DNA of 64,000 bases from positions 155,253,121 to 155,317,120 of the forward strand of contig CM056742.1 in the NCBI GenBank assembly GCA_029851415.1, in the 5' to 3' direction. Origin of the DNA: Eretmocerus hayati. Taxonomy: Eukaryota > Arthropoda > Insecta > Hymenoptera > Aphelinidae. Below are positions 4,371 through 63,520 of this stretch, one piece after another. Within the stretch, counting starts at the first letter, position 1. Each line of letters opens with the position of its first letter. The translations under genes and the position numbers were made by a program. The notes under the pieces were generated by a model. The model saw nothing but the letters and a program-made list of their open reading frames with translations, was not told the DNA's origin and did no database searches.

Positions 4371-5241
4371 ATGAACAGTGCAGAAAGATTGCTGCATGAG
4401 AATGATTCATTTTTTCCTGAGTTCGGTGAAACTCTTGCTATCGATGGTAGTGAAAGACGAATCATCCAACAAAAATGCTCTTTAGAAGCAATCAAGTTTA
4501 GAAAGAAAGGAAGTGATCTGTTCAACCAGAGGAAGCAAGATGAGTTGACACACAGACTGATACTTTCATATTATTCAAAAAGCATAGCTTATGCACCAAG
4601 CAATTCTGAAGAACTTGCATTAGCTTACAATAACAGATCTTTACTATGGTTGCGTTTACATAAGCGTGATTTCTGCTCCAGTGATATTGAGAGGGCTTTG
4701 AAGATCACCAAATCAAATGAGCTGAAACAGAAGCTACAAGCTCGCAAAAACAAATGCTCAAACTCGAGTCATGATCACAACCCTGAAACAAGCGCAGAAA
4801 TCTCGCTTTCTACTGCATCAAGAAATATTGTATGTGGATCCGATTCCATAACTGTTGAGTATAATGAAGACTGTGGCAGACATCTTGTCGCCACTCGCAA
4901 TATTAAAGCAGGAGAAGTAATATTACATGAGCAGACTCCTTACGGATTTGTTGACCTCCACAATTTCTATCTCATTTGCTCGAACTGCCTAAAATATGCT
5001 TGGATTGGTATCCCATGCGAATATTGTGTCTACACAATTTACTGCAGTGAATCTTGTAAGTCAGAAGCTTGGCTTCAATACCATGATGTGATGTGTCCTA
5101 TGCTTCCATTTCTCATCAACAAAGCAAACAAACCTGTTGCCTGTATGCTTCTCAATATGATGAAAATGTTGATAATTAACATTAGAAGAGAGGGTCTGGA
5201 AACTGTCATCAGTGAAGCAGAGAAAATTGACGATGGAGATG
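4371..5241 (+). CDS. Smyd4: SMYD4-like exon 1 (TPR, SET N-part, MYND)
   Basis: Encodes MNSAERLLHENDSFF to about residue 290 and ends at a donor (G|GTGAGT) in phase 1. The MYND finger runs from C203 (CSNC) through CEYC, YCSESC and YHDVMC to C242, with the standard C-x2-C spacing. The TPR part contains SYYSKSIAYAP and ALAYNNRS, which resemble the TPR consensus. Reading on past 5241 reaches a stop within about 24 codons, which supports the splice. Confidence 0.85.
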
Positions 5242-8200
5242 GTGAGTCAATGCTCAATTCATTGATTGATTCATTTATTCCATGCATGATGATATTGTGT
5301 AATTTTTTATAGATGAGAAGAATTTTCTTCAAGCCAAAAGATTCGACTGTCACAAGTTCAGCTCTTTGTACAATCTGAAAAGCTATTTTGATGAAGAATG
5401 TGAGGAGACAGATATTCTTGAAATGGGTATCGATACTCATGTATCAAGCTTGTTGCAATTGCTGAGCAGATCTCCAATCATTAACAACCCATCCCAAAAT
5501 CTTGACCAAGAAGTAATCCAGTCTTCATTGGAGTGGATACTGAAGAAATTATTTGTGATACTATCATCAAATGGCTTTAAGGTAAAAATTCCTACAAGAA
5601 TACTGCCTGTCGAAGAATGTAAAAGCAATTATTTATTTCATTAGAAGACTTGACTTTAATTTCTTCAGATGACTCACTCAATAATCTTCTTTTCTACCTC
5701 CAGTTTGAAGACGTGACTCTGGGTTATAGAAATTTGACTGAATCAACTTGTATCTCTGTCAGAGGGACCATAGTTGGACCTTGCAGTAGTCTAATTAATC
5801 ATAGCTGTGATCCAAATACCAGTATGATGTATTTACTAGGACCAAGAATAGTCATGTACACTATTCGACCTGTGAAGAAGGGGGAGCAAGTAAGTTTCCC
5901 TGATTTGAATTTTTATTTTTATAGTTACAACTCGCAGAAAATACGTGACGGATATTAAATTTCTTCACCTATGAATTATTAAGAGCATGTGATCCTTGTT
6001 GAACATGTTAATGCATGAAACCAGAAGATTTATCTCGACTTTAATGAAGAAAGAAACCGTACTTGTTTAAATTAGGAACAAAACTTTCCTTGCATTTGTA
6101 AGAATGAAACGTCCTGGCTACCGTTTGAGGAATAATAATGCTTCATAACAGAAACAACCTGAGAAAGCATGTTTAAATACTACAAATTATTATCCCTTTA
6201 TAAGCGGGTGGGTGGGTCCTGCATTGCCCATACGGCTTGATATTGCCGACTGTACCTATCTACGTAGGAACGGGCGTAGCTATGCGAGATGATGACATAG
6301 TTATGTAGGATCGATTCTGCAGCCGAATTTTCATATTGTCATTAATGGATTATCACTGTACGAACACTATTTTACGTTTTATGAGATGCGGATCGGGTCT
6401 AAGGCCATGTCGGAGTCCCGCGGCAAAAACGGAGTTACAGCTTGCGCGGTGGTTTTTACACCAGTTGAGACGGGGGCGGTCGCAAATGACTCTGAATTGC
6501 TTTAGGGATGTGCCTCTGGTGAGAATTATAACGTCACTCACTCTTGAGGAGGAATCGATGAATCGCGAGATATTCCAATTCTGATTCGCAGAGAGCGTGA
6601 CCTTGCACCTTACCTCGAGTTTCGAGGGAGATAGAGACATATGTCCTTACTGATCGTACTCATTCCTGAAGCAATTCCAAGTCATTTGCAACCAACCCCG
6701 TCTCAACTGATTGAGAAACCATTGCGAAAAGTGTACCCCGTTTTGCGCGAGACTCCGTTATGGCCTTGATTTAATAGGTATTTTTCATGGATGTAAACAC
6801 GACATCTTTGACCAAGAATACACAACAAGAGTATTTGTAAGAAACATTTCAATCTCTAGAAATTTTATCACGACGATTTACACGGTCAAAAACGAGATAT
6901 TTCTGAATATTTTACGAGATTTTACGTGCATTCCGCCTTATTGGAACCTCTATAGAAGATAATCAACTCGAATAATCAAATACTCATGCGTTTCTAGATA
7001 GTCTGGATTGTACAGGTTTCAAAAGCTTCATCAGAGAATTTTTGGAAAACTAATCCGTTTATCAGAATCAGCGCGGAAAAGCCATTGACTCGAAGTATTC
7101 GTGCGCTTGGAAGCTATGTGAGAGTTATATGTTGTCAACAAACAATTTAATTGCCGCTAGACTCTTTTGTGATATTTAATTTTACTTCAAAATTAAAAAA
7201 TCACCAGTTATGAAAAATAACGTTTACGATGGAAAATGAACAATGTTAGACTTTCAGAGTATTCTTGAGTAAGGCATAATTGATCACACAGTATTCGATT
7301 GAAAAACTGCCCCGGTTTAAAATCTCAGAGGTCAGAAGAGCTTCAATTCCAAATCCCTATAAAGGGCCATTCAAATCTCTCCGAGTCGAGTAAGTCTCGA
7401 AACAGTCAAAAAAGGATTTTTATTACCTGAAAGTTTTGGATAGACCTCTTTAGCTCGGCTTCATATGGATTAGTATTTTTTCAAAAATGAGGCAGAACTC
7501 TTTACTCCTTACGAAATTAGATGAGGACTTTCAAGTTCTCATTGGTTGAACCATGTTGCATCTATGTAAGTGCTATCAATCTTCCAGTAATATCAAAGAA
7601 TATTTCATCAATACCAAAGTTTTCTCTTGAACAACTTCAATTTCATCATTTGCAATGTGTATGTACAACATACATACGTACAGATGATACATTCGATTGA
7701 TTATATTGATTATATTGTTCAATTTGCAGCTTTGTATCAGCTATGGACCGACTGCTACTCAGGACTTAGAAACGAGGCAACATGGATTACGGAACACCTT
7801 TTTTTTTCGATGTAAATGCAAGCCTTGTGTGGAGGACTGGCCAGATTTGGATGATTTGGTAAGTGGATGATTATGATTTTATCATATTTTTATTTACAGA
7901 TAAGAATGCAGGCTGAAGTGGCTATTTGCAAAAATTCCTCACATGTGAATTTTCACGAACATATCGAACTTGTAAAAATACGCAATCCTCAACGCAATGA
8001 AGAACGCAACCGGTTCCAACATGGGTGCATTTTTTCCTAAAAATTATTTTGAGAATAAGAATGAGAAAACTTTGATAAACAGACAACAGACTATAGAAGT
8101 ATCTTGGGTTAATGAATTCAACTTTTATACTATTGAATATTTATACTATTATTTGATGTCTGTGGTGCCGAAAAATAAGTTCTTGGTTATACAGAAGCTT

Positions 8201-11200
8201 TTGGCGAGCTACTGAGCTCGACTCAATTCGAAACCTTGTTGAGATGCACAGTCACGAGCCACCCTGATGACGTGGATAAAGACTTCAACGTAGAGAACCT
8301 ACGTTAAAATTCAAATTTTGATTGGTACTAGTGTGATTTTTTACAGTGTGCCTATTTTGATCGCTTCGGTGGTTCAGACCCACCATTAACTGTTAGCTTC
8401 ACAAATTAATCTCGTGAAGAGGTTGAGAATGCGTCATTAGTAAGAAGGCCAAGGTCATACTATGGTGCTTAATTAGCCATGAAGTTTGTGCATAACTTGA
8501 GTTTCAAGCATTCAATCACACAAAGAAATTCAGTTCAACTTACTCGGCCATGAATGGAAACTAAGCCATGTAATACTCATTTATGTTTCGGTATTTCAAT
8601 TTACACTTGTAGCTCCCTCATGTGCGGATTTACATACGACGGCGGACTCTCACATAACAAAATGCTAGACAATCGCCCCTATCATCTCAAGTGCTTTTCT
8701 GGCGTAAAAACATATTTTTTAGTTAAAAAAATTTGCGTAAAACGGTCAAATTCAATTAAGAAAAATTTTTGTTCTCTAATTTTCTTGTTTTAGCGATTCA
8801 CTATTCATTCCACATAGGTACACTCTGTCAAGTTTCTACATCACGTGGCTAGACATTTTTCAAAAGTTCTCAATATATTTCGATGCACCCAAATAGTGTA
8901 TTTCCGTACTGACAATGAGTGCGTTAGCCAATTTCGGGGCCTATATGTATATTGAGTTTGTCTGTCAAGCGAAACGAGACAAACGAAGTGTCAGAGCGGA
9001 AAATCTGTTCGAAAGAGACACTTTGTCACACAGAGTGGCAAAAATGGTCCTTACTCCTCCATACGTTAGATGAGCAAGAATCATTGTTTTCACGTCGATT
9101 TACAGTGAATTTTTATTCATCTGATAATCAAAACGGTACTTCTCGAGCTGTTTCATTTCATTTTTCGCTTCTTTATTTTCTTTCTCGCATGCACCGGTTA
9201 ACACTTCTTTCCATTTCTCACACAATTTTGGGCATAGCAGCAAGTGTTTACGCTAATTAATAAAGATAATAATATGGTGAGCAATGCTATCGAGAAGCTT
9301 CTATCATTCGCCATCTTCTCCGTGCTCGTGTGACACTTCTTACATTCGTAGAGGATTGAGATGGAAGGATTTGGCGATTCCCATTATACCTTTGTATAGC
9401 TCAAATCAGCCGACCATATGAGTTGTATATTTTTACTGCATTCGTGATTCAGTATGATATTATTCATCAAATCTTGAAATGACCGCCCTCGTAGAGAACG
9501 CGGGAAATCATCCTACTCTCGTTCCTCAACTTTTCTTTTTCGGATCGGCTAATAAGATAACCAAGACTTTTGAGAGGGTGCATATCCTATCCCTTGATAA
9601 TGGCATACTTACATATTCTTTTTACGAATTTTCAATTGATAGCATTACCTCAAATCAATTGTTATGACTTATCATCTGTTTCATTCTTTTAATATTATAA
9701 TTTTATTAGATGCGACTCTCAAATTTTGCATTTCTGCAAGATGTTTAAGAACAAATATCTTTTCAAGTGCATATTAGATAAGTTTTGAGGAGTTGAGAAG
9801 CTCTGATGCGCAAGAACCAGAGCCTCGGCTGAGAGACTGTCGGTGAATGTGATTAAGTCGAGGATTATTGCAAGTCAACGGATTCGAAAAACAAGAAATC
9901 CTGACGAATGGCACCATCATTTCAAACATCTTTCGGATTTGCATCTCTTTTCTTACAACACAGCACTATCTACTGAGATGGAAAATTGTTTCCCAGAATC
10001 TTGAACTGCCGACTCCGGAGAACTCCGTCATGAATAATGTCTCTTGGCTAATTTTTCCACAGTAAATGAATTTAAATTTTGTCCCAAACCTTCCGAGAAC
10101 CTCATTTGAAAAATGCTCAACGTAGAAAGCGTCATACTGCTATGGGCGCCGCGGGCCGCAGTGTGCTGAGTGCCTTTCATCTTGGCTATCTCCGTGCCGT
10201 ACTTTTCTCTGAAGAATCGCACCCGAGCTTGGTTCACATTTGATCAAAATATAGTTCGACAACTTTTTCATGGACAAATTCTCCAAAATTGAACAATTAT
10301 GGCATACTTTTACATTAAAAATTTCAGATGAATCATGAGAGCACTACCGCTTCCTTGAAAAACTGAGAAACATCTGATAACTTCTGGTTAAACGGAACTA
10401 TCTTGTTTACTCTGGGCCATCAATATATGTGGGAACTCAAGAGGGGCTAGTTTTATCATAACTGAATTTGGCAAACGTGTGGGTCAATGCGCACTTATCT
10501 TCGGTCTGGTTCCACGATCTCGTATTTTTTTTGTATTGGTTCATGGTTGATCATTTCAAAAAATTGAGGATTGCCAAAATCCGAAGAGAATATCAAGGTG
10601 TCAGTTTGATTTTGATCGAACTACAATCAAACAATCTGCTCCAGATCAATACCGAACACGCTCCTTGATACTATCTTCGGATTTTGGCACTTATTGTATT
10701 CTCGTTTCGTTGAAATAATTAAGCACGAGCCAATACAAAGCAATACGCAATTGCAAAATCAGCCCGATTGGCTTAAGAAATAGGTGCGCAATGACCCACA
10801 CGTACGTTCGCCGAATTCACTTATGATAAACCTCCCCCGTTCTGAGCTTCCACATATACAATTTATTCGTTGGGCTTGGCGTTGTTGATCTCATCATTTT
10901 CCAACCCAAAGATATTGTGACTCAGATTCAGAACTAGCCCGAAATTCAGGCGCACGTTGACGTCGATCGAAATCGCCACATAATCCCACTATTCCCATGC
11001 AATGAGGGGAATTTTCTATAGATCAAATTACTCAAAATGAAAAGGGCATCGAGTTTTGTGACTACGCGACTAGGGTTTAGTGTTCTGAGATTTCGGTTGA
11101 GATCTATCGTTTCGGTATACTTTTATATTTACAAGTGTACTGAATTATAGGAATTAGGGTTTAGGTCAAACTGTTGTTTGAACGAAAATAAAATTCCTAT

Positions 11201-13025: not shown

Positions 13026-14231
13026 TTAAACGGCAAGTGATAAATGTTTCTCTTCTTCAATCAAGTCAGATACAATTGCCGTCATTCTTTCCTTATAAAT
13101 CGGGTCTTCGTCAATGGCCTTACTAATCAAGCCAAATCTATCTTTAAACAACCATTTTTCCAAAATTTTTGGATCGTTCATCAACAAGTCCGACTTCTCC
13201 TTCTTCAAATAATGTCCAGGCAAATACATACACGCATAAGTCATTCCAACAATCCTTCTTTTTTGCCAATCTTCCTTGAGGGCTTCGCACGAAGGTAAAA
13301 CAATTTCGGCATCGCTCCTTGAAATTGCATGGCGAAGAGCTTCATAATAATGTTCAATCATTTGACTCTCCATTTTTTTTCTGAAATCTGGTGTGCTGTT
13401 GATGTACAAAAGCATTCCCACGTCGATCGATGGCGATGCGTACCGTAGAAGCTGAAAATCCACTAGGACACATTTTGGTGGCTGACTCTGGTCAAACATG
13501 AGATTATTTTTCCATAAATCCGAATGACAGATCACATTGGGCACCCGAGCATCTTTTGCTGGTCTGACACTTTCATAAACCCTTCTCATTATTTCAGGTA
13601 CCAAATTTGAATCTAGTCCGAGCTTTCGGGCCATCAGCTCAATGGTCTTGAATCCTAAAGCAATGATTTCCCCGTACTTGTGGCCACTTGTGAAGACTCT
13701 TTCTTTGAATGCGTTTGGAAAAATTTCAGTCAATTTCTTGCTTGACTGGCCTTCGAACATCAACGAGTAAGCATGGAGTTCGGCCAAACTTGAGAGAGCT
13801 GATCGTATATCAGTCTCATTAAGAGGAAAGCTCTCGCGAATGGAAAAGCCTTGAGCTCGCAAATCCTCGAATACGAGTTGTTTAGGCTGAACCAAGTAGC
13901 ACGTTGGGAGCCATTTCTCATGTCTGCAGGTCCTGGAAAGGGTTGTCAAGACTTTATCGAAAAAATGAGTTTCCTCGATGAAGATTCCGTCCATAAGTTG
14001 AGCGATTGCCGTCGATTCGTCTGACAAGGATTTCACGAAGAAACTTTTATGGGTGGCACTAGTCCGTGTTTGATCAGAAATCTGAACACGTAACAGTTGG
14101 TGTTGGCCTAAGATACCAGCTTTTGATTCAGAGTAGGGCTCTAGTTCGTATCTCACAATCTTCTCGCCCGAATTAAGAAGGCCTGCTCGTAATGCCACAG
14201 TCTCTACGTTTTCGCGAGTCAGGGACGTCAT
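13026..14231 (-). CDS. EcKinase-like (CHK domain) protein A
   Basis: Intronless frame of 401 residues from the ATG at 14231 (MTSLTRENVETVALRAG); an in-frame TTG five codons upstream is not a likely start. The family comprises ecdysteroid-22-kinase-like proteins, which have an aminoglycoside-phosphotransferase/choline-kinase fold and are thought to phosphorylate steroid hormones or xenobiotics in the cytosol. The catalytic loop reads CHSDLWKNNLMFD (H-x-D-x4-N form) and the metal-binding motif VDFQLLRY replaces DFG. An early KSFFVKS segment probably supplies the ATP-binding lysine, and VFEDL with SLAELHAYS are family features. Full length (about 400 residues) is usual. The paralogue at 15884-17089 has identical length and opposite orientation. 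The substrate cannot be told. Confidence 0.92.
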   Translation of the reverse strand: MTSLTRENVETVALRAGLLNSGEKIVRYELEPYSESKAGILGQHQLLRVQISDQTRTSATHKSFFVKSLSDESTAIAQLMDGIFIEETHFFDKVLTTLSRTCRHEKWLPTCYLVQPKQLVFEDLRAQGFSIRESFPLNETDIRSALSSLAELHAYSLMFEGQSSKKLTEIFPNAFKERVFTSGHKYGEIIALGFKTIELMARKLGLDSNLVPEIMRRVYESVRPAKDARVPNVICHSDLWKNNLMFDQSQPPKCVLVDFQLLRYASPSIDVGMLLYINSTPDFRKKMESQMIEHYYEALRHAISRSDAEIVLPSCEALKEDWQKRRIVGMTYACMYLPGHYLKKEKSDLLMNDPKILEKWLFKDRFGLISKAIDEDPIYKERMTAIVSDLIEEEKHLSLAV

Positions 14232-14269
14232 GGCCTTCCGTGCCAAACAACCTCATACGATATTCCAAT

Positions 14270-15845: not shown

Positions 15846-15883
15846 CTTCGGATATTGTGTGAGATTGTTTGACGTACAAGGCC

Positions 15884-17089
15884 ATGACGTCCCTGACTCG
15901 CAAAGACGTAGAGATTGTGGCATCACGCGCAGGACTTCTCAATTCAAATTCACAGGTTACAAGTTATCAATTTGAGCCCTTTTCTAAACTAAAAAATGGC
16001 ATTTTGGGCCAACACCAGCTATTACGGGTTCAAATTTCTGATCCAACGCTGACCAGTGATACCCATCAAAGTTTCTTCGTGAAATCCTTCTCAGACGAAT
16101 CGATGGTAAGCGGGGAAGCTCTGGATGCAATCATCTTCGAGGAGACGCATTTTTACGATAAGGTCTTACCAGTTTTACTGGAAACCTGCGAAAATCAAGA
16201 ATGGCTCCCCAAGTGCTACTTAGTTCAGCCAGAAGTTCTCGTGTTTGAGGATTTACGATCTCAGGATCTTTCCATACGCGAAAGCTTTCCTCTTAGTGAG
16301 ATGGACATCCGGTCAGCCCTATCGAGTTTGGCCGAATTTCATGCTTGTTCTTTGGTGGTCCAGGGCCAAGGGAGAAAGCAACTGACCGAAATTTTTCCAA
16401 ATGCATTCAAAGAAAAAGCCTATACTAATGATCACAAGTTCGGCGAGATGATGATTTTAGGATTCAAAACCATCGAGCTGATGGCCCGAAAGCTCGGACT
16501 AGATTCAAATTTGGTAACTGGAATATCGAGAAGGGTTTATGAAAGTGTCAGACCAGCAAAAGATGCTCGGGTGCCCAATGTGATCTGTCATTCGGATTTA
16601 TGGAAAAATAATCTCATGTTCGACCAGAGCCAGCCACCAAAATGTGTCCTAGTGGATTTTCAGCTTCTACGGTACGCATCGCCATCGATCGACGTGGGAA
16701 TGCTCTTGTACATCAACAGCACACCAGAGTTCAGAAGGAAATTGGAGTGTCAAATGATTGAACATTATTATGAAGCCCTCCGCCATGCAATTTTAAGGAG
16801 CGATGCCGAAATCGTTGTACCTTCGTACGAGGCCATCAAGAAAGATTGGCGAAAAAGAAGGATTGTTGGAATGACTTATGCTTGTATGTATTTGCCTGGA
16901 CTTTACTTGAAGAAGGAGAAGTTAGAAGTATTGATGAATGATCCAAAGGCCTTGGACAAATGGATGTATGAAGATAGATTTGAGTTGATTAGTGAAGCTA
17001 TTGACCAAGATCCAGTTTATGAAGAAAAAATCAGGGAAATTGTAGCTGAATTGATTGAAGAAGAGAAACGTTTATTACGCGACGGATAG
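15884..17089 (+). CDS. EcKinase-like (CHK domain) protein B
   Basis: Intronless, 401 residues from the ATG at 15884 (MTSLTRKDVEIVASRAG). The catalytic loop HSDLWKNNLMFD begins at residue 236 and the DFQ metal-binding motif at residue 258. SFFVKSF likely carries the ATP-binding lysine. It is co-linear with protein A, with no length difference. Residues about 200-285 are almost identical to protein A, also at synonymous sites, while the N-terminal third and the tail are clearly diverged. This suggests gene conversion. Like its partner it is probably a cytosolic kinase for a steroid or a dietary toxin; the substrate is unknown. Confidence 0.92.
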   Translation: MTSLTRKDVEIVASRAGLLNSNSQVTSYQFEPFSKLKNGILGQHQLLRVQISDPTLTSDTHQSFFVKSFSDESMVSGEALDAIIFEETHFYDKVLPVLLETCENQEWLPKCYLVQPEVLVFEDLRSQDLSIRESFPLSEMDIRSALSSLAEFHACSLVVQGQGRKQLTEIFPNAFKEKAYTNDHKFGEMMILGFKTIELMARKLGLDSNLVTGISRRVYESVRPAKDARVPNVICHSDLWKNNLMFDQSQPPKCVLVDFQLLRYASPSIDVGMLLYINSTPEFRRKLECQMIEHYYEALRHAILRSDAEIVVPSYEAIKKDWRKRRIVGMTYACMYLPGLYLKKEKLEVLMNDPKALDKWMYEDRFELISEAIDQDPVYEEKIREIVAELIEEEKRLLRDG

Positions 17090-19559: not shown

Positions 19560-21251
19560 AGGCTCGCGCGCATGGTGCCGTACCGAGCGCGGGGCCCTAT
19601 ACGCAGGTAGTCAGGCAGTGAAGAAGCAGCGCTGGGAGGCGCGAGGAACGCGGAGCGGTGTGGCGGTAAATTTCGAGATGTGAGGAGAATCATTATAATA
19701 TCAATGTTTTGTGTTTGAACGATATGTGAATAAGTGCATAGTGGAAGTATTCTCAGAAGTCCATCATAGTTAGTTGAAGAAGTAATAACAATTTTGTTGT
19801 GAGTAATAATTGTTGATCTACAGATCAAAAACCGTTGTAATATCTATATTGTAAGCGACTCTGTGACACACGTCTTGAAACATCATCAGTCGTTGATCCG
19901 TGTGTTTACAACTGTAAGATCCCACAGGTAAACTCGACCTTTCTATATCCTCACACGTACGTAACGTTGACGAATATAAATGTCTGGAAACAAGGTGAAT
20001 GAAATGAATATTAGATCGAATCGTTACAGCCAAAAGGCTTCAACAGGATCCAGAAAACACCTTGAAGAAATATATGAGGCTCAGAAATTGAATCGTTTCA
20101 ATAATAAGACCACTGGTTCCTGCATTGTTCACGTATTTGATTCAAGAAACAGTTTCAATCTTGGAAATTTGAATCGCTTAAAATTCCGCCAGATACTTGA
20201 CAACTCGAGATACAAGCGATAAATCACATATTCCGATTCGGCCCTCTGAAGTATGCCATCCGCTTTAAAGATCACCAAACTGCCAATCGTTTCGTGGAGA
20301 ATCAGGAAATTATTAAGGCTAATGAATTCTGGAGAGCTTTTATCCCAGATTCGAGCTGCTACGAAATAGGTCTGATATTTAGAATCCACCCTTCGATATT
20401 AGAATCTAATATACTAAATGGCCTGAATGTTGAGTCTCGGAAAAAAATTTGTAAAGTCAAAAGAGTTTTCAGTAAGCGCAAAGATGCGTCAGGCTCTGAG
20501 ACACATATCAAAACAGATCGAGTGAAAATTTATGAGGAAAACCAGCTCCCTTCACATATACGATTATTCGGATCAATTTACAGAGACGTGAAATACTATG
20601 TTACACCGGTCATACGTTGTTATAACTGTCAAAAATTTGGCCACAAAGCAAACTTCTGCAAAAACGTAAAAGTATGTCAGAATTGTGGCTGCAGCCACCC
20701 GATTTCAGAATGTAACAATCCTGAGAAATGTGTAAACTGTGATGGTGGACATAGAGCATCAAATCGATCTTGTCCAGCTTTTGCCTTTAATGTCAATGTA
20801 AATTTGGTATGCGCCATGAGAAATGTCAGTAGAACAGAAGATTTCAAATAGTGCAGACTAGCTCAAAAATTAAGATTCTAGGGTACCAAAAACGCATCAA
20901 TTCGTGTCACGATTCCAAGAAACGAAACGAGAACGAATCCGAAATCCTTCCTGATAAATGCGAAAAGGTGGTTTCAGAGATCGAAAAAAACGAGAAGGAT
21001 TGTGAGGACTCGGACAATAACAACCAAAAAGAGAACGTGATTGTAGAATCGATAAATAGCATAGACACATTTACGGTGACTGACGAAAACTCCACTCTGA
21101 ATGGTGACTCTAAAATCGAAACCTTGCCCGTAGATTCACAGACCCAAAAGCGCCATAAGGACGACACTACCAATACATTAGATGCAAAATCACCAATTAG
21201 TCCGACCTTCAAAACTGAAGTAACGGGAGATAAGCGAAGCGACCAAGCACA
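19560..21251 (+). pseudogene. Non-LTR retrotransposon ORF1 (gag with CCHC knuckles), frameshifted
   Basis: A GC-rich leader (about 19560-19700) resembles a LINE 5' UTR. ORF1 opens with an ATG at 19980 (MSGNKVNEMNIRSNRYS). The frame shifts near 20160-20220: the 5' frame stops at 20222, while the next frame carries FGPLKYAIRFKDHQTANRF and FIPDSSCYEIGLIFRIH, typical of Jockey/I-type gag. Three zinc knuckles follow: CYNCQKFGHKANFC, CQNCGCSHPISEC and CVNCDGGHRASNRSC. A second shift lies next to the TAG at 20849-20851, after which an acidic tail runs to the foldback at 21252. ORF1 proteins are RNA-binding chaperones of retrotransposition. No reverse-transcriptase frame follows, so it is a dead or truncated copy. 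Confidence 0.75.
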
Positions 21252-22433
21252 CCCGGCTGAAAATGGTCGCGCAACAGTGGCGCTTCTGTCCCGCCACCGT
21301 CGCGCGACCGTCGGGCTATGCTCATGGCCCGCGAATGTCGCGCGACCGGCTGGTGTGGGATATGCAGGCGGTGGACTGTCGAAAAATGCCAGAAGGCGAC
21401 GAATACCACGGAGGTACGGATGGCACCCATAACAGTCCTGGACAAGCTACTGCTGATACCCCATACACTGCCAGGATGGTACCCGCTCCATCTGGTCGCG
21501 CGACAGTTGCGCGATGGTCGCGCGACCGAGTACCAAAACCCCGAATGTAATTGCGTTGATTTGCGAAGCTATACAGCTAAATTTTGGCTCGGATCAATAA
21601 TTTTCTACAGTTTGCACGTATTTAATAGTATTAAACAAGATGCAAAAGTCTCTTCTTGTTTTAATGTGGCATCGTATACGATACCCATCAAAATATCAGA
21701 GCGCAATGGCTAACACCAGCTAACACCATCGATCGCTCCTGTGAACGTTTGCTTCTGGGGTACTGTATACCGACATCAAAGTTCCTCTTGAATGTTGCGG
21801 AATGAGGTCCCCGCCACCTAGCGGTGGAGTTGGCGGAAAGAAATTCTGCACTTTTCGTCAGAAGTAAAAGGTTGGCTCATCACCAGTAGGTGGCAGTGGC
21901 TTCATTCTACAACATTCAAGAGGAACTTTGATGTCGGCATACAGTACTCCAGAAGCAAACGTTCACAGTAGAGATCGATGGTGTTTGCCGTGGATCTCTG
22001 AAATTTTGATAGGTATCGTATACGATGCCACATTAAAACAGGAGGAGACTTTTGCATCTTGTTTATTACCAATAAACATGTGCAAACTGTAGAAAAGTAT
22101 TAATTTGAGCCTAAATTTAGCTGTGTAGCTTCGCAAATCAACGCAATTACATTGGGTGTTTTGGTACTCGGTCGCGCGACCAGATGCAGCGGGTACCAAC
22201 CTGGCAGTGTATGGGGTATCAGCAGTAGCTTGTCCAGGACTGTCATGGGTGCCATCTATACCTCCGTGGTATTCCTCGCCTTCTGGCCTTTTTCGACAGT
22301 CCACCGCCTGCATATCGTACAACAGCGGTTGCGCGACATCCGCGGTCCATGAGCATAGCCCAACAGTCGCGCGACGGTGGCGGGACAGAAGCGCCACTGT
22401 TGCGCGACAGGCACGCGACCATTTTCAGCCGGG
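21252..22433. mobile_element. 1.2-kb foldback element with GTCGCGCGAC motifs
   Basis: A long inverted repeat starts CCCGGCTGAAAATGG at 21252 and ends with its reverse complement at 22433. Arms of about 550 bp stay complementary in to about 21800 and 21905 (for example GTTCCTCTTGAATGTTG against CAACATTCAAGAGGAAC), leaving a loop of about 100 bp. The arms are GC-rich and repeat the palindromic word TCGCGCGAC many times. Apparent open frames on both strands are mirror images from the palindrome, not genes. It interrupts the retrotransposon ORF1. No target duplication was found. Confidence 0.8.
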
Positions 22434-26094: not shown

Positions 26095-26470
26095 AAGGGA
26101 AAAGGGCGTAACCGCCATTACGCCCTTTTTTCCGCCCCGCCTTTTTTGAGCCTCTGTACCAAGATCTACCACCCCTCGAAATCCGTTTTTCGTAAGAACC
26201 CGAAAACTGCCTGACAACAAGAAGGTCGCAATGGCGCTTAAGCCCCTTTAACGGCAGAATGAAGCCACTTAAGCCCTTTCTCTGAATATCACGGCAGTTA
26301 CCCCTTTTTACCGGCATAATGATTGCACTTATGCCCTTTTTCTGAATATTACCGCAGGTACGCCCTTTTATTGGCAGAATGATTGCATTTTTACGCCTTT
26401 TTTTCGAATACCACGGCAGTTACGCCCTTTTATCGGCAAAATGATTGCACCTATGCCCCTTTTTCCGAAT
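26095..26470 (-). repeat. Minisatellite array, minus orientation
   Basis: Units of about 61 bp, each made of two of about 30 bp, repeat the words GGCAGTTACGCCCTTTT and ATGATTGCACTTATGCCC between about 26220 and 26470. A short palindrome (AAGGGCGTAACCGCC against its inverse) lies at about 26100-26130. Read on the minus strand the unit is AAAGGGCGTAACTGCC, the same family as 27055-27400. Confidence 0.7.
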
Positions 26471-27054
26471 AGCGCGCCATGGCACGTGTAAAAATACAGA
26501 CGCGAGGCCCGTGCATGTTCGAAAGCAAAGTGACGCCCACTACTAGAGGGTGTCGAGTTCAGCTTCGATGGATAGACCTTTGTGTAGTATCAGCAAGTGT
26601 AAATTTTGAAGTCGTAAGTAACTCTCGATTCATTTTTCGGTTAATCGATAATTTTTCTCAAATTTACAAATAATTTAATCAATACCAAACTGTAGCAGAT
26701 TGGAAAATTTGGGATATTACAAACGAGCGGAACAATAGCCAGACATCTAAGAATCATTATAAATATCTTCCGATGGAAAGAAAGGTCTTGAGTTTACCCG
26801 AAAAATTCCGAAGTGAAGTCAGTTCTGGAGGTCAGGCTGATGCCTAATTTCTTGTGATTCCAGTTGTGAAATTCAATTTCGAAATGATTTTATCAAAAAA
26901 ATAGACCTTGAATGACCTTCCGAGGCTCAATTCGGGTGAATATGTTGAAAACTAAACAAAATCCCTTAGTTTGGTTTTATGTTTTCTATGTCGATTCCAA
27001 CATGACAACATCGGTTGCCGAGTATAAGTATTACACGACTTTTAAAACATTTTG

Positions 27055-50300: not shown

Positions 50301-53300
50301 TGTTTTTCATTGCAGTTAAGAAAATTTTGCGAGGCTCTTGCTGTGATGCATATCGTACTTATTACATACAAATTTCTTATTCTGTAGAGAAATTTTTCGG
50401 TAACCTCGGTAAATTTATTGAGGTATCGTATGTATATACTAGTGTTGATATGGGAAGAAATTATGAGGCTTCGATGATTTGCAGCACAGGAAAGGGAAAA
50501 AGCGAGGTTCTCGCGACCATCTGTGGCAGCCGCAGGCTAAGCAGCTAGAGCTCACCTATGGGCGCAAATGGAGGTGCCCAAACGATTTCTTCAACGACGA
50601 AATGATCGCGGACGTGCTCTCGTCCCAGGCGGAAGTCATCCGGGGAAGGGCGCTCGGGTAAGTGTCGTGACGATGCCTATGATCTCTTTACCTCCTCCCA
50701 ATAAGGCTCCATCATCGTCGCGCTCTCACCCTATTTAGCCCGGGCCCGATACACGCTCTTGCTCACTTCTCTACTTTCTGTCATCGCGATATCGAACCTA
50801 CTTTAGAACCAATGTGGTTCTTAGCCATATTCGGATGAGATGCAAAATATTACAAATTTAAGTGTATGATACGTGAGTCAAGGTAGAGCCATTAGGGAAT
50901 ATTTCCAAAGACAACCAACCGGAACCAAACAGATTTCTTGAACAAATTGTGGCGAGATTATTTCAGTGATTCTGATCTCAAAACAAATGAAAACAGTGAC
51001 TATTATAGGCAAAATTAAGAACTTCTCGGCAAAAGTTGCATGTATGCTTATTTCAAATTTTTAAAAAAATGTCTTGTTATGAAGTAAGGATTACTGATGA
51101 GAACAGAAGGAAACTTGATGTTTTACCCCACGTTTTTGCACACGATGGCGGTAGTTTCGCCTACTCTACCAGATGTATAATGATTTCATGAAGTACTTGA
51201 TGAATTGTTGCGTTCCCCAACTTGATAATTTTTTTGACAAGTTCAGTAATCATCACGAGCTTGAGAATATGATAACTCCTGATGTTACCTTCCCGTGTCT
51301 TATGAAATTGAAAATTAGAATATTTTCATTCTGTGTACGTCCTTTGATTACAATTTATACGTCCATACGTAGAAACCGCGTGTTTCTAGGCCTCCTCGCG
51401 TAGCGAGGAGGCCTGGAAACAAGCTGTTTCTGCGTACAGACGTATAAAACTGCATACGCGTCTCGTGCGGAAACATTTTTCCTTCGGGAAAACCAAGCTG
51501 GACGGTGCCATCGCCCACGTCCAGCTCGGTTTCCCGAAGGAAAAAATGTTTCCAGCACTCGACGCGTAATGTACTATTTTTGGTGTTCGTATCAATCCAA
51601 TTGAGTTCAAGAGCAAATACGTGGCCAAAGGCGACCATGCGAGAATTTCACTGATCGTTTATGAACACATGAACGAGAGAAAATCTGTTTCAGATTTGTC
51701 ATTTGGTTCTTCGTATGCTCGATTATTCGTTCAATCTAGGAAAAATAATTAGTTGTACCACAAAATGTTAACTCGATCAATGTGCAACATAAGCGCTGTA
51801 AGCTGCTTATTAACGCCTATACCAGAAGAGAAGAATATAACATATATGAACTTCAGAGGAGGAGAAAGATGGGGGGGGGGTTGAGAATAAATTTTCAATG
51901 AGTGTAGTCGATGTGTTAGAAGTAACACGATGTTTTTAATATGCTTGCCCGAAATGAGCATTACTTTTTTTTTTCCTCATCGACCAAGTACGAACTCAAT
52001 GATTATCTTTAAAGAAAAATGCATCATCACATCAATTCCTTACTGCTAAATTGACTCATACGAATAGTGAACCGCAATTTGCGACCTGTATTCAGGGAAA
52101 AGAGTGAGCTGAAAAAATTGGAAAATTTCTTGTTGAACATACGAAGTTTTGTTTTTGAGAATAACAAGACTGCCGTCTTTATCTAATTGTATGTGAAACA
52201 ATACTCGTTTAGTTAAGTTCGAGAGGAGGTATACGATGGTTCAAATCTTTCATTTCTATTGCCTTGAAAATCCCATTGAAAATTGGAAATACGAGTGGAA
52301 ATACGTCCCTTCCAAATTGAGATATGATAGCTCGATAACTCATCATGTCGTGACTCATGCGATGCTTTTTGCAAGATCAATTCCAAAACACTTTTTGAAA
52401 CCGATCTCGCACGTGTGGTCAGTGGTTGAACACTTCAATTATTGATGGAACGTACTCTGACAGAGTATCATTACTCGACACCATTTTCTAATCAAGAGAG
52501 TTGAGTCAAAGTGATACTGACTGATGTATCATCTTATCGTCAAACGTCGGAGCTGGATTATTTTTTTACTGATCGATGTCTCAAATGATACCCTCTGCAC
52601 GCAAATGCAGATTCCCCAAAGCAAAGACATTTCATACTCTTTACACATCTTAGGAAAAAGAAGAGATTAATCTATACTAGGAGCCAATGCTGAACAAAGC
52701 AACAGGTAGAGAAAAATACCGTTTACCGTAACTTGCTACCCATTTGAGCGATCGGCTAAGTAAAGGTCTACCGGCCACAATGTGATTTTCGTTCAAGTTC
52801 TGATTTACTGCTTTGACTCAACAGGAATTTCCAGACCAGATAGGGAGATGACGAGATAATTTTCAACTCTTGGGTTCACTCTTTACGTGCAAAAAGTGAC
52901 TTTACCAGCGTGCCATCGGAAATTGATTTATCACCATCAGTGTAAGGGTTCTCTTTCAGAATTCAACTAGATGGAAGATTAAATTGTCGTTAAAATAGTC
53001 GTAGATTGCGGCACTTGGAAATTTTATGGAGTTGAGAAAATCGCCTCTGGTCATCGGGGTGGAATGTAATGATTCTGAAGGACTTGAACGAGTTTTTCAT
53101 TCAATGGTATTCTTATACCTCTTGTGAAAAATTGAGGGGTTTTCAATTGAACTACCGTATTTCTAATATTAAGCTACAATAAAAAAATTGACGACAGGAT
53201 GAATTGATGAGATAATCACTCACTAGACATCATTTCATTCATGTCAGAAACACTGCTATGCCATCTCCCACAGAAAACCTAAGCACTACTTCTACCCACG

Positions 53301-61870: not shown

Positions 61871-62414
61871 TCTGAATATTTAGCTCAATAAGTTGCGTTT
61901 TGATCGCCCTTATATACATGCAATCGAAGATAATGAATCTATTTTTTGCCAAATAGTATTTCAATTTCACATTTCCCACTCGAAAAAAATGAGGAAGGTG
62001 AAATACCAAAACATTTCCAGCCGAATGAGTTGTTTCATGCCTGGAAATTCTTTCTTTATCTCGAGAAAATCGTAGTTCTTCGATCCGCTAGGCAAGTTTT
62101 TCTTTCTTGAATTCAAAGTTCACGTTAAGATTCGCTAGGCAAGTTATACTAGGTTTATTCGATTATGCAGTTCAGGGCGCACTGGGGCACTCCAGAGCGC
62201 TCTAGAGCACCCCAGTGCGATCCAAATCGAACGAACGTTCGGACAGTTCACACCAGTGCGCTCTAGTGTGCGCTCTGGGGGGCTGTTCCTATGGTTATTG
62301 GTTAGGCGTGTATGCTGATATGACGATGTGGGGTACATAATACCTCACACGCGCAATAGATGGATGACAGATCCAGCTCCTTTCCCGGAATCAACGGCTC
62401 AAAACCTCGATTAG

Positions 62415-62422
62415 TATATAAG
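62415..62422 (+). promoter_or_regulatory. TATA box in LTR1
   Basis: TATATAAG starts 32 nt before the first base of the ribozyme. A typical 25-32 nt spacing would place transcription start at about 62440-62447, right at the ribozyme edge. The same box is at 63010-63017 in LTR2. Confidence 0.6.
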
Positions 62423-62446
62423 AGCGCATAAGTGCTTCATCGCCAA

Positions 62447-62529
62447 GCGCCCAGGGCACCACCTGCAACACCAGCCCTGCTGATGAGTCCGGTTACGATG
62501 AACCAGGTTGCAGGTGGGGGACGAAACGC
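62447..62529 (+). ncRNA. Hammerhead ribozyme, LTR1 copy (variant cleavage triplet)
   Basis: Type III layout: GCG / CGC stem III, stem I CAGGGC/GCCCTG, core CTGATGA, stem II GTCC/GGAC plus GGTT/AACC, core GAAA. The expected cleavage triplet GUC is GCC here (62449-62451), so the A15.1-U16.1 pair is lost. All other core bases are intact. Cleavage is probably slowed or abolished. Confidence 0.85.
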
Positions 62530-62601
62530 ATAAGAGCCTTCTGCTCGAGCGTAGTAGAATCATTCATTAGTAGTGGATAAGCCATGAGCTTATTCCTACA
62601 T

Positions 62602-62621
62602 TGGTAACCCGCGACGTGATT
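62602..62621 (+). promoter_or_regulatory. Primer-binding site (tRNA-Trp type)
   Basis: TGGTAACCCGCGACGTGATT lies one base after LTR1. It differs at two positions from the complement of the eukaryotic tRNA-Trp 3' end, TGGTGACCCCGACGTGATTT over its first 19 bases. Downstream bases (ACGCAAC and GGAGTCAGA by 62655) also match the complement of the tRNA-Trp body. Confidence 0.75.
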
Positions 62622-62904
62622 GAAACGCAACTTTCATGGAGTCAGATCAGTCTGAAGCATATACTCATTGCGAGTACGCTGAGTAAAACCTTCCCTCTCT
62701 TCACATTTGACCTTTAGCTAAGCGCCGTTGTCCACAACACGCAGATAGCCTCGAAGCATCGACTCGGCACTGCACGTGAGACACGGTAGTTCGGTGTCAC
62801 GATGAATTCGCTCTCGGCATTTGCAGCTATAATGCGGGGCCATGGAAGAGATGAAAGTGCAATTTGAATATCAATTAAAATCATCCCTTGAACGCTATGG
62901 CTCT

Positions 62905-62921
62905 GAAGCGGGGGGAGTGGC
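62905..62921 (+). promoter_or_regulatory. Polypurine tract
   Basis: GAAGCGGGGGGAGTGGC directly precedes the TG of LTR2, the place where plus-strand DNA synthesis is primed in LTR elements. Two pyrimidines and a T make it imperfect. Confidence 0.65.
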
Positions 62922-63198
62922 TGTGGGGTACATAATACCTCACATGCGCAATAGATGGATGACAGATCCAGCTCCTTTCCCGCAATCGACGGCTCAAGAC
63001 CTCGATTAGTATATAAGAGCGCATAAGTGCTTCATTGCCAAGCGTCCAGGGCACCACCTGCAACACCAGCCCTGCTGATGAGTCCGGTTACGATGAATAA
63101 CCAGGTTGCAGGTGGAGGACGAAACGCATGAGAACCTTCTGCTCGAGCGTAGTAGAATCATTCATTAGTAGTGGATAAGCCATCAGCTTGTTCCTACA
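62922..63198 (+). repeat. LTR2 of the retrozyme (277 bp)
   Basis: Same TG...CA ends and order of motifs as LTR1, with an extra TAA in the stem II loop of its ribozyme. It is followed by ACGA, the target duplication. Confidence 0.9.
63042..63127 (+). ncRNA. Hammerhead ribozyme, LTR2 copy (intact)
   Basis: Stem III GCG(U)/(A)CGC; cleavage triplet GUC with the scissile bond after C63046; stem I 63047-63052 with 63069-63074; loop 1 63053-63068; core CUGAUGA 63075-63081; stem II GUCC 63082-63085 with GGAC 63117-63120, extended by a GGTTA/TAACC hairpin (63086-63102); core GAAA 63121-63124. A bulge at 63103-63116 lies on the 3' side of stem II. Its GTTGCAGGTGG (63105-63115) is the exact complement of CCACCTGCAAC in loop 1 (63054-63064). 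All core nucleotides are canonical. The open stem III makes it type III. Confidence 0.93.
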
Positions 63199-63318
63199 AC
63201 GAATCTATCGGAGCGCCATCTATCACACATGCATAACCATGCATAGGAACAGCTTGAAATATTTCGGAGGCGCCCCAGCCCAGAGCGCACTGGTGTGAAC
63301 TGTCCGAACGTTCGTTAG

Positions 63319-63448
63319 AGTGCGTCCACAAATGGAGCGCGCGCGCTGCCCCCATGCTCCCGTGCGGCTCCCGGCGCGCGCGCTGGGAGCTGCGGGGGGG
63401 GGGGGGGGGCATGGGGGCCGCGCGCGCGCTCCATTTGTGGACGCACGC
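63319..63448. mobile_element. 130-bp palindromic element with TTAG duplication
   Basis: GTGCGTCCACAAATGGAGCG at the left is matched by its inverse at the right. TTAG flanks both sides (63315-63318 and 63449-63452). The equivalent place in the left arm of the host foldback lacks the insertion, which shows the empty site. The centre has a 16-nt G run (63394-63409). Confidence 0.8.
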
Positions 63449-63520
63449 TTAGATTTGGGTCGCACTGGGGCGCTCTGGAGCGCTCCAGTGCGCCCCGAAC
63501 TGTATAGTCGAATAAACCTA

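What the first reader, a model, noticed from the sequence alone, without database searches (positions are those of the whole stretch)
62327..63198. An LTR retrozyme in an animal genome
The element combines TG...CA LTRs, a PBS, a polypurine tract and a 4-bp target duplication with one type III hammerhead ribozyme per LTR and no protein. To my knowledge this plan is described for plant retrozymes, while known animal retrozymes are ribozyme tandem repeats linked to Penelope-like elements with type I hammerheads and lack PBS and LTR signals. An insect version with full LTR-retrotransposon features would be a new class or an independent origin. The element may replicate through a ribozyme-made circular RNA while borrowing proteins from a Ty3/Gypsy-like partner.
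Basis: partly seen in the sequence, partly recalled or inferred. Interest (0 to 1): 0.95.

Follow-up and report, generated by a model that had tools for sequence, protein, structure and literature searches.

The report
LTR retrozyme in an insect genome
A short, protein-free jumping element in what looks like an insect genome carries a self-cutting RNA motif (a hammerhead ribozyme) inside each of its long terminal repeats, a body plan that the papers I could search describe from plants but not from animals.

Summary
Window 62327-63198 is an 872-bp LTR-type element: two direct repeats (274 and 277 bp, 95% identical) with exact TG...CA ends, a 4-bp duplication (ACGA), and a primer-binding site fitting tRNA-Trp (the best fit to tRNA-Trp in the window). 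It has a weak polypurine tract, a TATA box in each repeat, and no frame over 105 codons. A type III hammerhead lies in each LTR. The 3' one has every core base and matches Rfam RF00008 (36.3 bits, E 7e-6 locally, below the curated cut-off of 48.5). The 5' one has lost the U of the cleavage triplet and is probably dead in this copy. Stem lengths are plant-like (6 and 4 bp), but the enlarged loops share an 11-nt perfect complement. Best reading: a TRIM-like, non-autonomous LTR retrotransposon that processes its RNA with a hammerhead, i.e. an LTR retrozyme in an arthropod, probably moved by a Ty3/Gypsy partner. The papers I could search describe animal retrozymes as non-LTR with type I hammerheads. 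Only one copy could be studied: the whole-genome search did not complete (14 tries). Copy number, partner, RNA circles and ribozyme activity are untested, and the host order is unknown.

The parts
62323..62326 (.). target-site duplication ACGA, left
62327..62600 (+). 5' LTR (274 bp, TG...CA)
62415..62421 (+). TATA box (TATATAA), 5' LTR; predicted RNA start about 62439-62446 (inference)
62444..62532 (+). type III hammerhead in 5' LTR; C at 62450 in place of the required U16.1, probably inactive; cleavage position would be after 62451
62602..62621 (+). primer-binding site, complementary to tRNA-Trp 3' end (1 mismatch, 1 insertion)
62601..62921 (+). non-coding interior (321 bp)
62905..62920 (+). 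interrupted polypurine tract next to the 3' LTR (weak)
62922..63198 (+). 3' LTR (277 bp, TG...CA)
63010..63016 (+). TATA box (TATATAA), 3' LTR
63039..63130 (+). intact type III hammerhead: stem III 63042-63045/63124-63127, cleavage after C63046, stem I 63047-63052/63069-63074, CTGATGA 63075-63081, stem II 63082-63085/63117-63120, GAAA 63121-63124
63054..63064 (+). loop-1 strand, perfectly complementary over 11 nt to loop-2 strand 63105-63115 (same in the 5' LTR: 62459-62469 with 62507-62517)
62452..63046 (+). predicted self-cleaved unit / circle, 595 nt
   Evidence: length; release inferred
63199..63202 (.). target-site duplication ACGA, right

Best explanation
This is a non-autonomous, TRIM-like LTR retrotransposon with a type III hammerhead ribozyme in each LTR, i.e. 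an LTR retrozyme in an arthropod genome. Proposed cycle: (1) A TATA promoter in the 5' LTR starts RNA synthesis about at LTR position 113-120, just upstream of or at the ribozyme (inferred from the TATA box). (2) The hammerheads of the two LTRs cut the transcript after position 125 of each, releasing a 595-nt RNA without repeated ends (motif shown, cleavage inferred). (3) The RNA is closed to a circle by the ribozyme or a host ligase (inferred from plant retrozymes). (4) tRNA-Trp anneals to the PBS and the reverse transcriptase of an LTR retrotransposon copies round the circle, restoring two LTRs (PBS shown, the rest inferred). (5) That element's integrase inserts the DNA with a 4-bp target duplication (ends and duplication shown). 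The donor is most likely a Ty3/Gypsy element with a tRNA-Trp PBS (inferred). This copy is not recent (about 4% LTR divergence) and its 5' ribozyme is probably dead.
For: LTR anatomy. The PBS is the best tRNA-Trp site in 64 kb and lies one base from the LTR end. Intact hammerhead: Rfam RF00008 36.3 bits, E 7.2e-6; 1 descriptor hit in the window against 0 in 300 simulated windows. The 11-nt loop-loop complement reaches its length in 5 of 100,000 composition-preserving shuffles; loop-loop pseudoknots are a known stabiliser of hammerheads (PMC3088659, passages). The same plan is described in plants: HHR in LTRs, 4-bp TSDs, PBS, PPT, no coding potential (PMC4918200, passages). A plant retrozyme starts transcription at LTR position 116 (PMC12029980, section 2.1), close to the position expected here from the TATA box. 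[quoted passage not shown] No AATAAA occurs in the element, in keeping with an RNA end not made by ordinary polyadenylation (weak: the variants AGTAAA and ATTAAA do occur in the interior, at 62682 and 62874).
Against: One copy only. No other copy, empty site, partner, transcript or circle could be looked for in the host genome (14 unanswered genome-search runs). The Rfam score is below the curated cut-off. In the same whole-window scan two microRNA models reach a slightly better E-value (2.7e-4) on probably unrelated hairpins. Only 1 of 2 ribozymes has the intact core. The best nested fold is not the hammerhead but the 11-bp helix (-33.3 against -18.3 kcal/mol for the hammerhead without the pseudoknot). 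That nested fold itself is only moderately better than shuffles: 3' motif z -2.71 (3 of 200 as good), 5' motif z -1.40 (19 of 200), 131-nt stretch z -1.71 (12 of 200). The PBS has a mismatch and an inserted base within its first 10 nt. The PPT is interrupted.
Confidence: 0.8

Rival explanations
1. A TRIM whose hammerhead forms the RNA 3' end in place of polyadenylation. Cleavage in the 3' LTR a few bases past the start site leaves a short terminal repeat (R), and replication then goes by ordinary strand transfer on a linear RNA, with no circle.
For: The TATA box puts the start about 5-12 nt before the cleavage position (inference), so RNA from the start to the 3'-LTR cut would carry a short R at both ends. 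There is no AATAAA in the element. In this copy the 5' ribozyme is the dead one.
Against: At insertion both LTRs are copied from one template, so both ribozymes were presumably active and the 5' one would remove R. Plant retrozymes lose R in this way and make circles (PMC4918200, passages).
Confidence: 0.1
2. An ordinary insect TRIM in which a hammerhead-like sequence is present by chance or as a fossil without role.
For: TRIMs in which no ribozyme is described are known in ants and wasps (PMC3532108, PMC10886601). One of the two motifs is broken.
Against: 0 of 300 simulated windows hold the motif. All core bases and three stems are present in the 3' LTR with an 11-nt loop complement (5 of 100,000 shuffles). 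It sits right behind the TATA box.
Confidence: 0.06
3. A non-LTR animal retrozyme: a 1.5-unit tandem copy from a 595-nt circle, whose LTR look is accidental.
For: Two repeats of a 595-nt unit are formally a partial tandem dimer. Animal retrozymes are tandem (PMC7229834, passages).
Against: The repeat borders fall exactly on TG and CA, next to a tRNA-Trp PBS and inside a 4-bp duplication. A random stop in a tandem array would not be expected to give all of these. The ribozyme is type III, not type I.
Confidence: 0.04

Closest known systems
Plant LTR retrozymes (Cervera, Urbina and de la Pena 2016, PMC4918200)
   Same: Type III hammerhead in each LTR, 4-bp TSD, PBS and PPT, non-coding interior, cleavage sites about 600-800 nt apart (595 here), LTRs of 300-400 bp (274/277 here); stems I and II of 6 and 4 bp (PMC7936874)
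   Different: PBS fits tRNA-Trp, not tRNA-Met. Loops 1 and 2 are enlarged (16 nt and 28-31 nt with an inner hairpin) and share an 11-nt Watson-Crick complement, where the plant type has a 6-8-nt and a 4-nt loop with non-Watson-Crick contacts. Host is an arthropod.
Animal non-LTR retrozymes (Cervera and de la Pena 2020, PMC7229834)
   Same: Non-coding, hammerhead-bearing, expected circular RNA
   Different: Those have type I hammerheads, 170-400-nt RNAs from tandem units, no LTR, PBS or PPT, and, where present, TSDs longer than 4 bp
TRIMs of Hymenoptera: PbTRIM (PMC3532108) and Helenus (PMC10886601)
   Same: Short non-coding LTR elements, 4-bp TSD, PBS and PPT; some hymenopteran Helenus families use tRNA-Trp
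   Different: No hammerhead is described for them in the passages seen. PbTRIM has LTRs of 152-184 bp and a tRNA-Leu PBS. [quoted passage not shown]
Insect and HDV-like type III hammerheads with loop-loop pseudoknots (PMC7936874)
   Same: Type III in animals, base-paired loop-loop contact
   Different: Those have a 5-bp stem I with an internal loop and an extra hairpin, a 6-bp stem II and a 4-nt complement (GCCR/YGGC). In termite genomes they were isolated motifs.

Membership tests
Type III hammerhead ribozyme (Rfam RF00008) | All core bases (CUGAUGA, GAA, A15.1-U16.1, H17) with stems I, II, III | tested here: met
   3' LTR: descriptor, alignment, 36.3 bits. 5' LTR: not met (C at 16.1)
Type III hammerhead ribozyme (Rfam RF00008) | Score at or above Rfam gathering cut-off (48.5 bits) | tested here: not met
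   36.3 bits; probably because of the long loop insertions seen in the alignment
Type III hammerhead ribozyme (Rfam RF00008) | Self-cleavage | not testable with these tools
   needs in vitro transcription
LTR retrozyme | Hammerhead in both LTRs of a non-coding LTR element | tested here: met
   one of the two has lost a core base
LTR retrozyme | PBS next to the 5' LTR | tested here: met
LTR retrozyme | PPT next to the 3' LTR | tested here: inconclusive
   purine-rich but interrupted, longest run 8 nt
LTR retrozyme | 4-bp target-site duplication | tested here: met
   ACGA
LTR retrozyme | PBS for tRNA-Met (plant retrozymes) | tested here: inconclusive
   PBS fits tRNA-Trp; no tRNA-Met sequence was compared. 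If it holds, it speaks against membership in the plant lineage, not against working alike
LTR retrozyme | Circular RNA intermediate | not testable with these tools
   no RNA data
LTR retrozyme | Dispersed family of copies | tested here: inconclusive
   no second copy in the 64-kb window; own-genome search unanswered (14 calls)
Animal non-LTR retrozyme | Type I hammerhead, tandem units, no PBS/PPT/LTR | tested here: not met
TRIM | LTR element under 1 kb, non-coding, PBS, PPT, short TSD | tested here: met
   872 bp, longest frame 105 codons; PPT weak
Helenus (TRIM with tRNA-like sequence in LTR) | tRNA-like sequence in the LTR | tested here: not met
   ARAGORN 0 genes in the window; no tRNA family among Rfam matches, even with E up to 10 over 62200-63400; degenerate tRNA-like sequence could be missed

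The most novel reading that the evidence does not exclude
Arthropods have their own lineage of LTR retrozymes, arisen independently of the plant ones when a Gypsy-dependent TRIM acquired a type III hammerhead. The ribozyme sits at the very start of the transcript and uses a one-turn (11-bp) loop-loop helix. That helix can either lock the active fold as a pseudoknot or replace it as the stable nested fold, so it could act as a switch that keeps the circle closed.
Probability: 0.4. Interest if true: 0.85.

Novelty: new variant of a known kind. Interest (0 to 1): 0.75.

Why it matters
If more copies bear it out, LTR retrozymes are not confined to plants. A hammerhead inside an LTR then arose at least twice or moved between kingdoms, which bears on the proposed origin of viroids and satellite RNAs from retrozymes. 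A review has suggested transfer of type III elements from 'bacteria or insects' as a source of plant LTR retrozymes, citing unpublished work (PMC7761336, passage); this locus makes that question testable. It could also give an animal system in which a circular RNA is the template of an LTR-type reverse transcriptase.

Tried and rejected
Relatives in the held collections: exact patterns from the ribozyme, PBS and promoter gave 0 hits in viral contigs; the ribozyme pattern gave 0 in genome contigs. A looser stem-I pattern gave 5 viral contigs and 1 bacterial genome. None of the 6 loci holds a type III hammerhead by my descriptor. Rfam at gathering level also gave 0, a weak test because the window's own ribozyme fails that cut-off. 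These collections hold viral contigs and bacterial and archaeal genomes, and may leave out records near the window's genome, so the blanks say nothing about the family in insects.

Minus-strand reading of the element: rejected, because the sequence next to the LTR in that direction (printed) does not begin with the TGG of a tRNA-primed PBS (by eye). Bacterial promoter and terminator scan: 0 sites and irrelevant here. tRNA genes in the window: 0 (bacterial settings). Autonomous partner in the window: no second place with this PBS (best elsewhere 11 against 15). A regular-expression look at frames of 60 codons or more for [YF]xDD, zinc-knuckle and one loose motif listed 2 frames: a zinc-knuckle ORF at 20201-20848 and a 61-codon frame (5064-5246, minus strand) that met only the loose motif; no [YF]xDD frame was listed. 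This is a crude test, and Pfam was run on only 9 of the 16 frames listed. Host identification by protein search could not be made.

Papers: search listings only, save those named next. Passages seen of PMC7229834, PMC7761336, PMC10886601, PMC7936874, PMC11722881, PMC4918200, PMC12029980 (28, and its section 2.1), PMC3088659, PMC7555719 and PMC12025293; the first of six parts of PMC3532108. One DOI, taken from memory for a 2010 hammerhead survey, is not held. The statement that no animal LTR retrozyme was found in print rests on searches of an open-access library without preprints and with most subscription journals missing.

Full report
What is there. Two direct repeats, 62327-62600 and 62922-63198, are 94.9% identical: 11 substitutions (9 transitions) in 274 aligned sites, K2P 0.042, and one 3-nt indel. 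Similarity starts exactly at TG and stops exactly at CA on both copies. ACGA stands directly outside on both sides. The 321-bp interior begins with T and then TGGTAACCCGCGACGTGATT (62602-62621). This pairs with the 3' end of tRNA-Trp as printed in a mouse tRNA-fragment table (PMC7555719) with 18 identities, one mismatch and one inserted base. Scanned base by base over both strands of the 64-kb window, this is the best site (score 15; the best elsewhere is 11). The tRNA used is mammalian; that the insect tRNA-Trp has the same end is assumed, and no other tRNA was compared. Before the 3' LTR lies a purine-rich stretch, 62905-62920, interrupted by a C and a T, with 8 nt as its longest pure run; the polypurine tract is plausible but weak. 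No frame in the 872 bp exceeds 105 codons.

The ribozyme. The 3' LTR holds a complete type III hammerhead at 63039-63130. Stem III is 4 bp contiguous, extended in the Rfam alignment to 7 positions with one mismatch. Cleavage falls after C63046. Stem I is 6 bp, stem II is 4 bp, and all core bases are present. Rfam gives 36.3 bits (E 7.2e-6 for the 1.2-kb stretch; 3.8e-4 for the window). This is below the gathering score of 48.5, so the default scan is empty. In the 64-kb scan two microRNA models reach 2.7e-4, so the E-value alone would not convince. The independent test is a strict descriptor: one hit in the window, none in 300 simulated windows. The 5' LTR copy differs at the key place: position 16.1 (62450) is C, so the U16.1-A15.1 pair and the NUH triplet are lost. 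It is missed by the strict descriptor and by Rfam and is found only when 16.1 is left free; it is probably inactive. As LTRs are identical at insertion, this is most simply a later mutation.

Loops. Loop 1 (16 nt) and the 3' side of loop 2 contain CCACCTGCAAC and GTTGCAGGTGG, an 11-nt perfect complement present in both LTRs. Shuffles of the same loops reach 11 in 5 of 100,000 trials. Loop-loop pseudoknots are used by about 40% of hammerheads in one survey; the examples in the passages I saw have 4-6 bp (PMC3088659). The 11-nt version is longer than any I saw; whether all 11 pairs can form inside the active fold was not tested. Computed without pseudoknots, the best fold uses this helix instead of the hammerhead stems (-33.3 against -18.3 kcal/mol; duplex alone -19.6). 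That nested fold is better than most shuffles but not extreme: 3' motif z -2.71, 3 of 200 as good; 5' motif z -1.40, 19 of 200. The RNA may thus either lock the active fold or hold an inactive one, and which happens is not settled here. Between the LTR copies the inner hairpin of loop 2 changes from 4 to 5 bp through the 3-nt indel (structures).

Promoter and RNA ends. TATATAA lies at 62415 and 63010. There is no AATAAA in the element, though AGTAAA (62682) and ATTAAA (62874) occur in the interior. With the usual spacing (established knowledge), RNA would start near LTR position 113-120; the cut is after position 125. The plant retrozyme NbRZ1 starts at LTR position 116, as mapped by 5' RACE (PMC12029980, section 2.1). 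The unit between the two cuts is 595 nt, 49.4% GC. It folds more stably than dinucleotide shuffles (z -2.77, 0 of 100 as good); as a circle it reaches -190.5 against a mean of -168.8 (sd 7.7) for 30 mononucleotide shuffles.

Host. An ecdysteroid-kinase-like gene (PF02958, E 4.3e-42), a second one close to it in sequence that was not scanned, and a MYND-finger gene point to an arthropod. That PF02958 is chiefly an arthropod and nematode family is recalled. Window GC is 38.9% and CpG observed/expected 1.03. The order is not known to me: the protein database was switched off and the genome search did not complete (14 calls, listed under evidence against).

Setting. The element sits inside an imperfect inverted-repeat element (arms 62150-62264 and 63282-63520), which looks like a MITE; its right arm holds a second, GC-rich foldback. 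The flanks show no match to the LTRs.

What it works like, and what it is. In anatomy it is a TRIM with the defining extra of plant LTR retrozymes. It differs from the plant family in its PBS (fits tRNA-Trp, where plants have tRNA-Met) and in the ribozyme's loops. It differs from animal retrozymes in type III against type I, LTRs, PBS and the 4-bp duplication. Hymenopteran TRIMs with a tRNA-Trp PBS, and a Nasonia Gypsy element using tRNA-Trp, are in print (PMC10886601, passages), so a donor of the enzymes is easy to imagine in an insect; none was found here. Earlier structure searches for a different (extended) type III architecture reported none in hymenopterans, hemipterans and a cockroach but some in Diptera (PMC7936874, passages). 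One review mentions type III elements in insects with a reference to work in preparation (PMC7761336, passage), so specialists may already know of related cases.

Verdict. I rate it a new variant of a known kind with fairly high interest. It is limited by the single copy, the decayed 5' ribozyme and the absence of any genome-wide or RNA evidence.

Noticed in passing
window 62150-62326 and 63203-63520: Imperfect terminal inverted repeats (65 nt at 85%, 38 nt at 97%) with TA next to GGTTTATTCG/CGAATAAACC at the outer ends: probably a mariner-type MITE into which the retrozyme inserted.
   Followed up: partly
window 63317-63449: GC-rich foldback (45-nt arms, 93% complementary, with a run of 16 G) in the right MITE arm, apparently flanked by TTAG on both sides: a second nested insertion.
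   Followed up: no
window 13026-14252 (-) and 15863-17089 (+): Two similar ecdysteroid-kinase-like genes, each in one long open frame, in divergent orientation (Pfam run on the first only).
   Followed up: no
window 21261-21713 (+) and 21963-22424 (-): Frames on opposite strands share stretches (e.g. CNCVDLRSYTAKF, QDAKVSSCFNVASYTIPIKISE), so a long inverted repeat of a mobile element probably lies here.
   Followed up: no
window 20201-20851 (+): ORF with CCHC zinc knuckles, like ORF1/gag of a retrotransposon, without a nearby intact reverse transcriptase by a crude motif search; no Pfam match.
   Followed up: no
window 26238-26471: Tandem repeat of 60 bp (3.8 copies, with a 29-bp sub-period).
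   Followed up: no
window 51352-51451 and 10510-10759: Matches far below the gathering scores to microRNA families, probably foldback elements rather than microRNAs.
   Followed up: no
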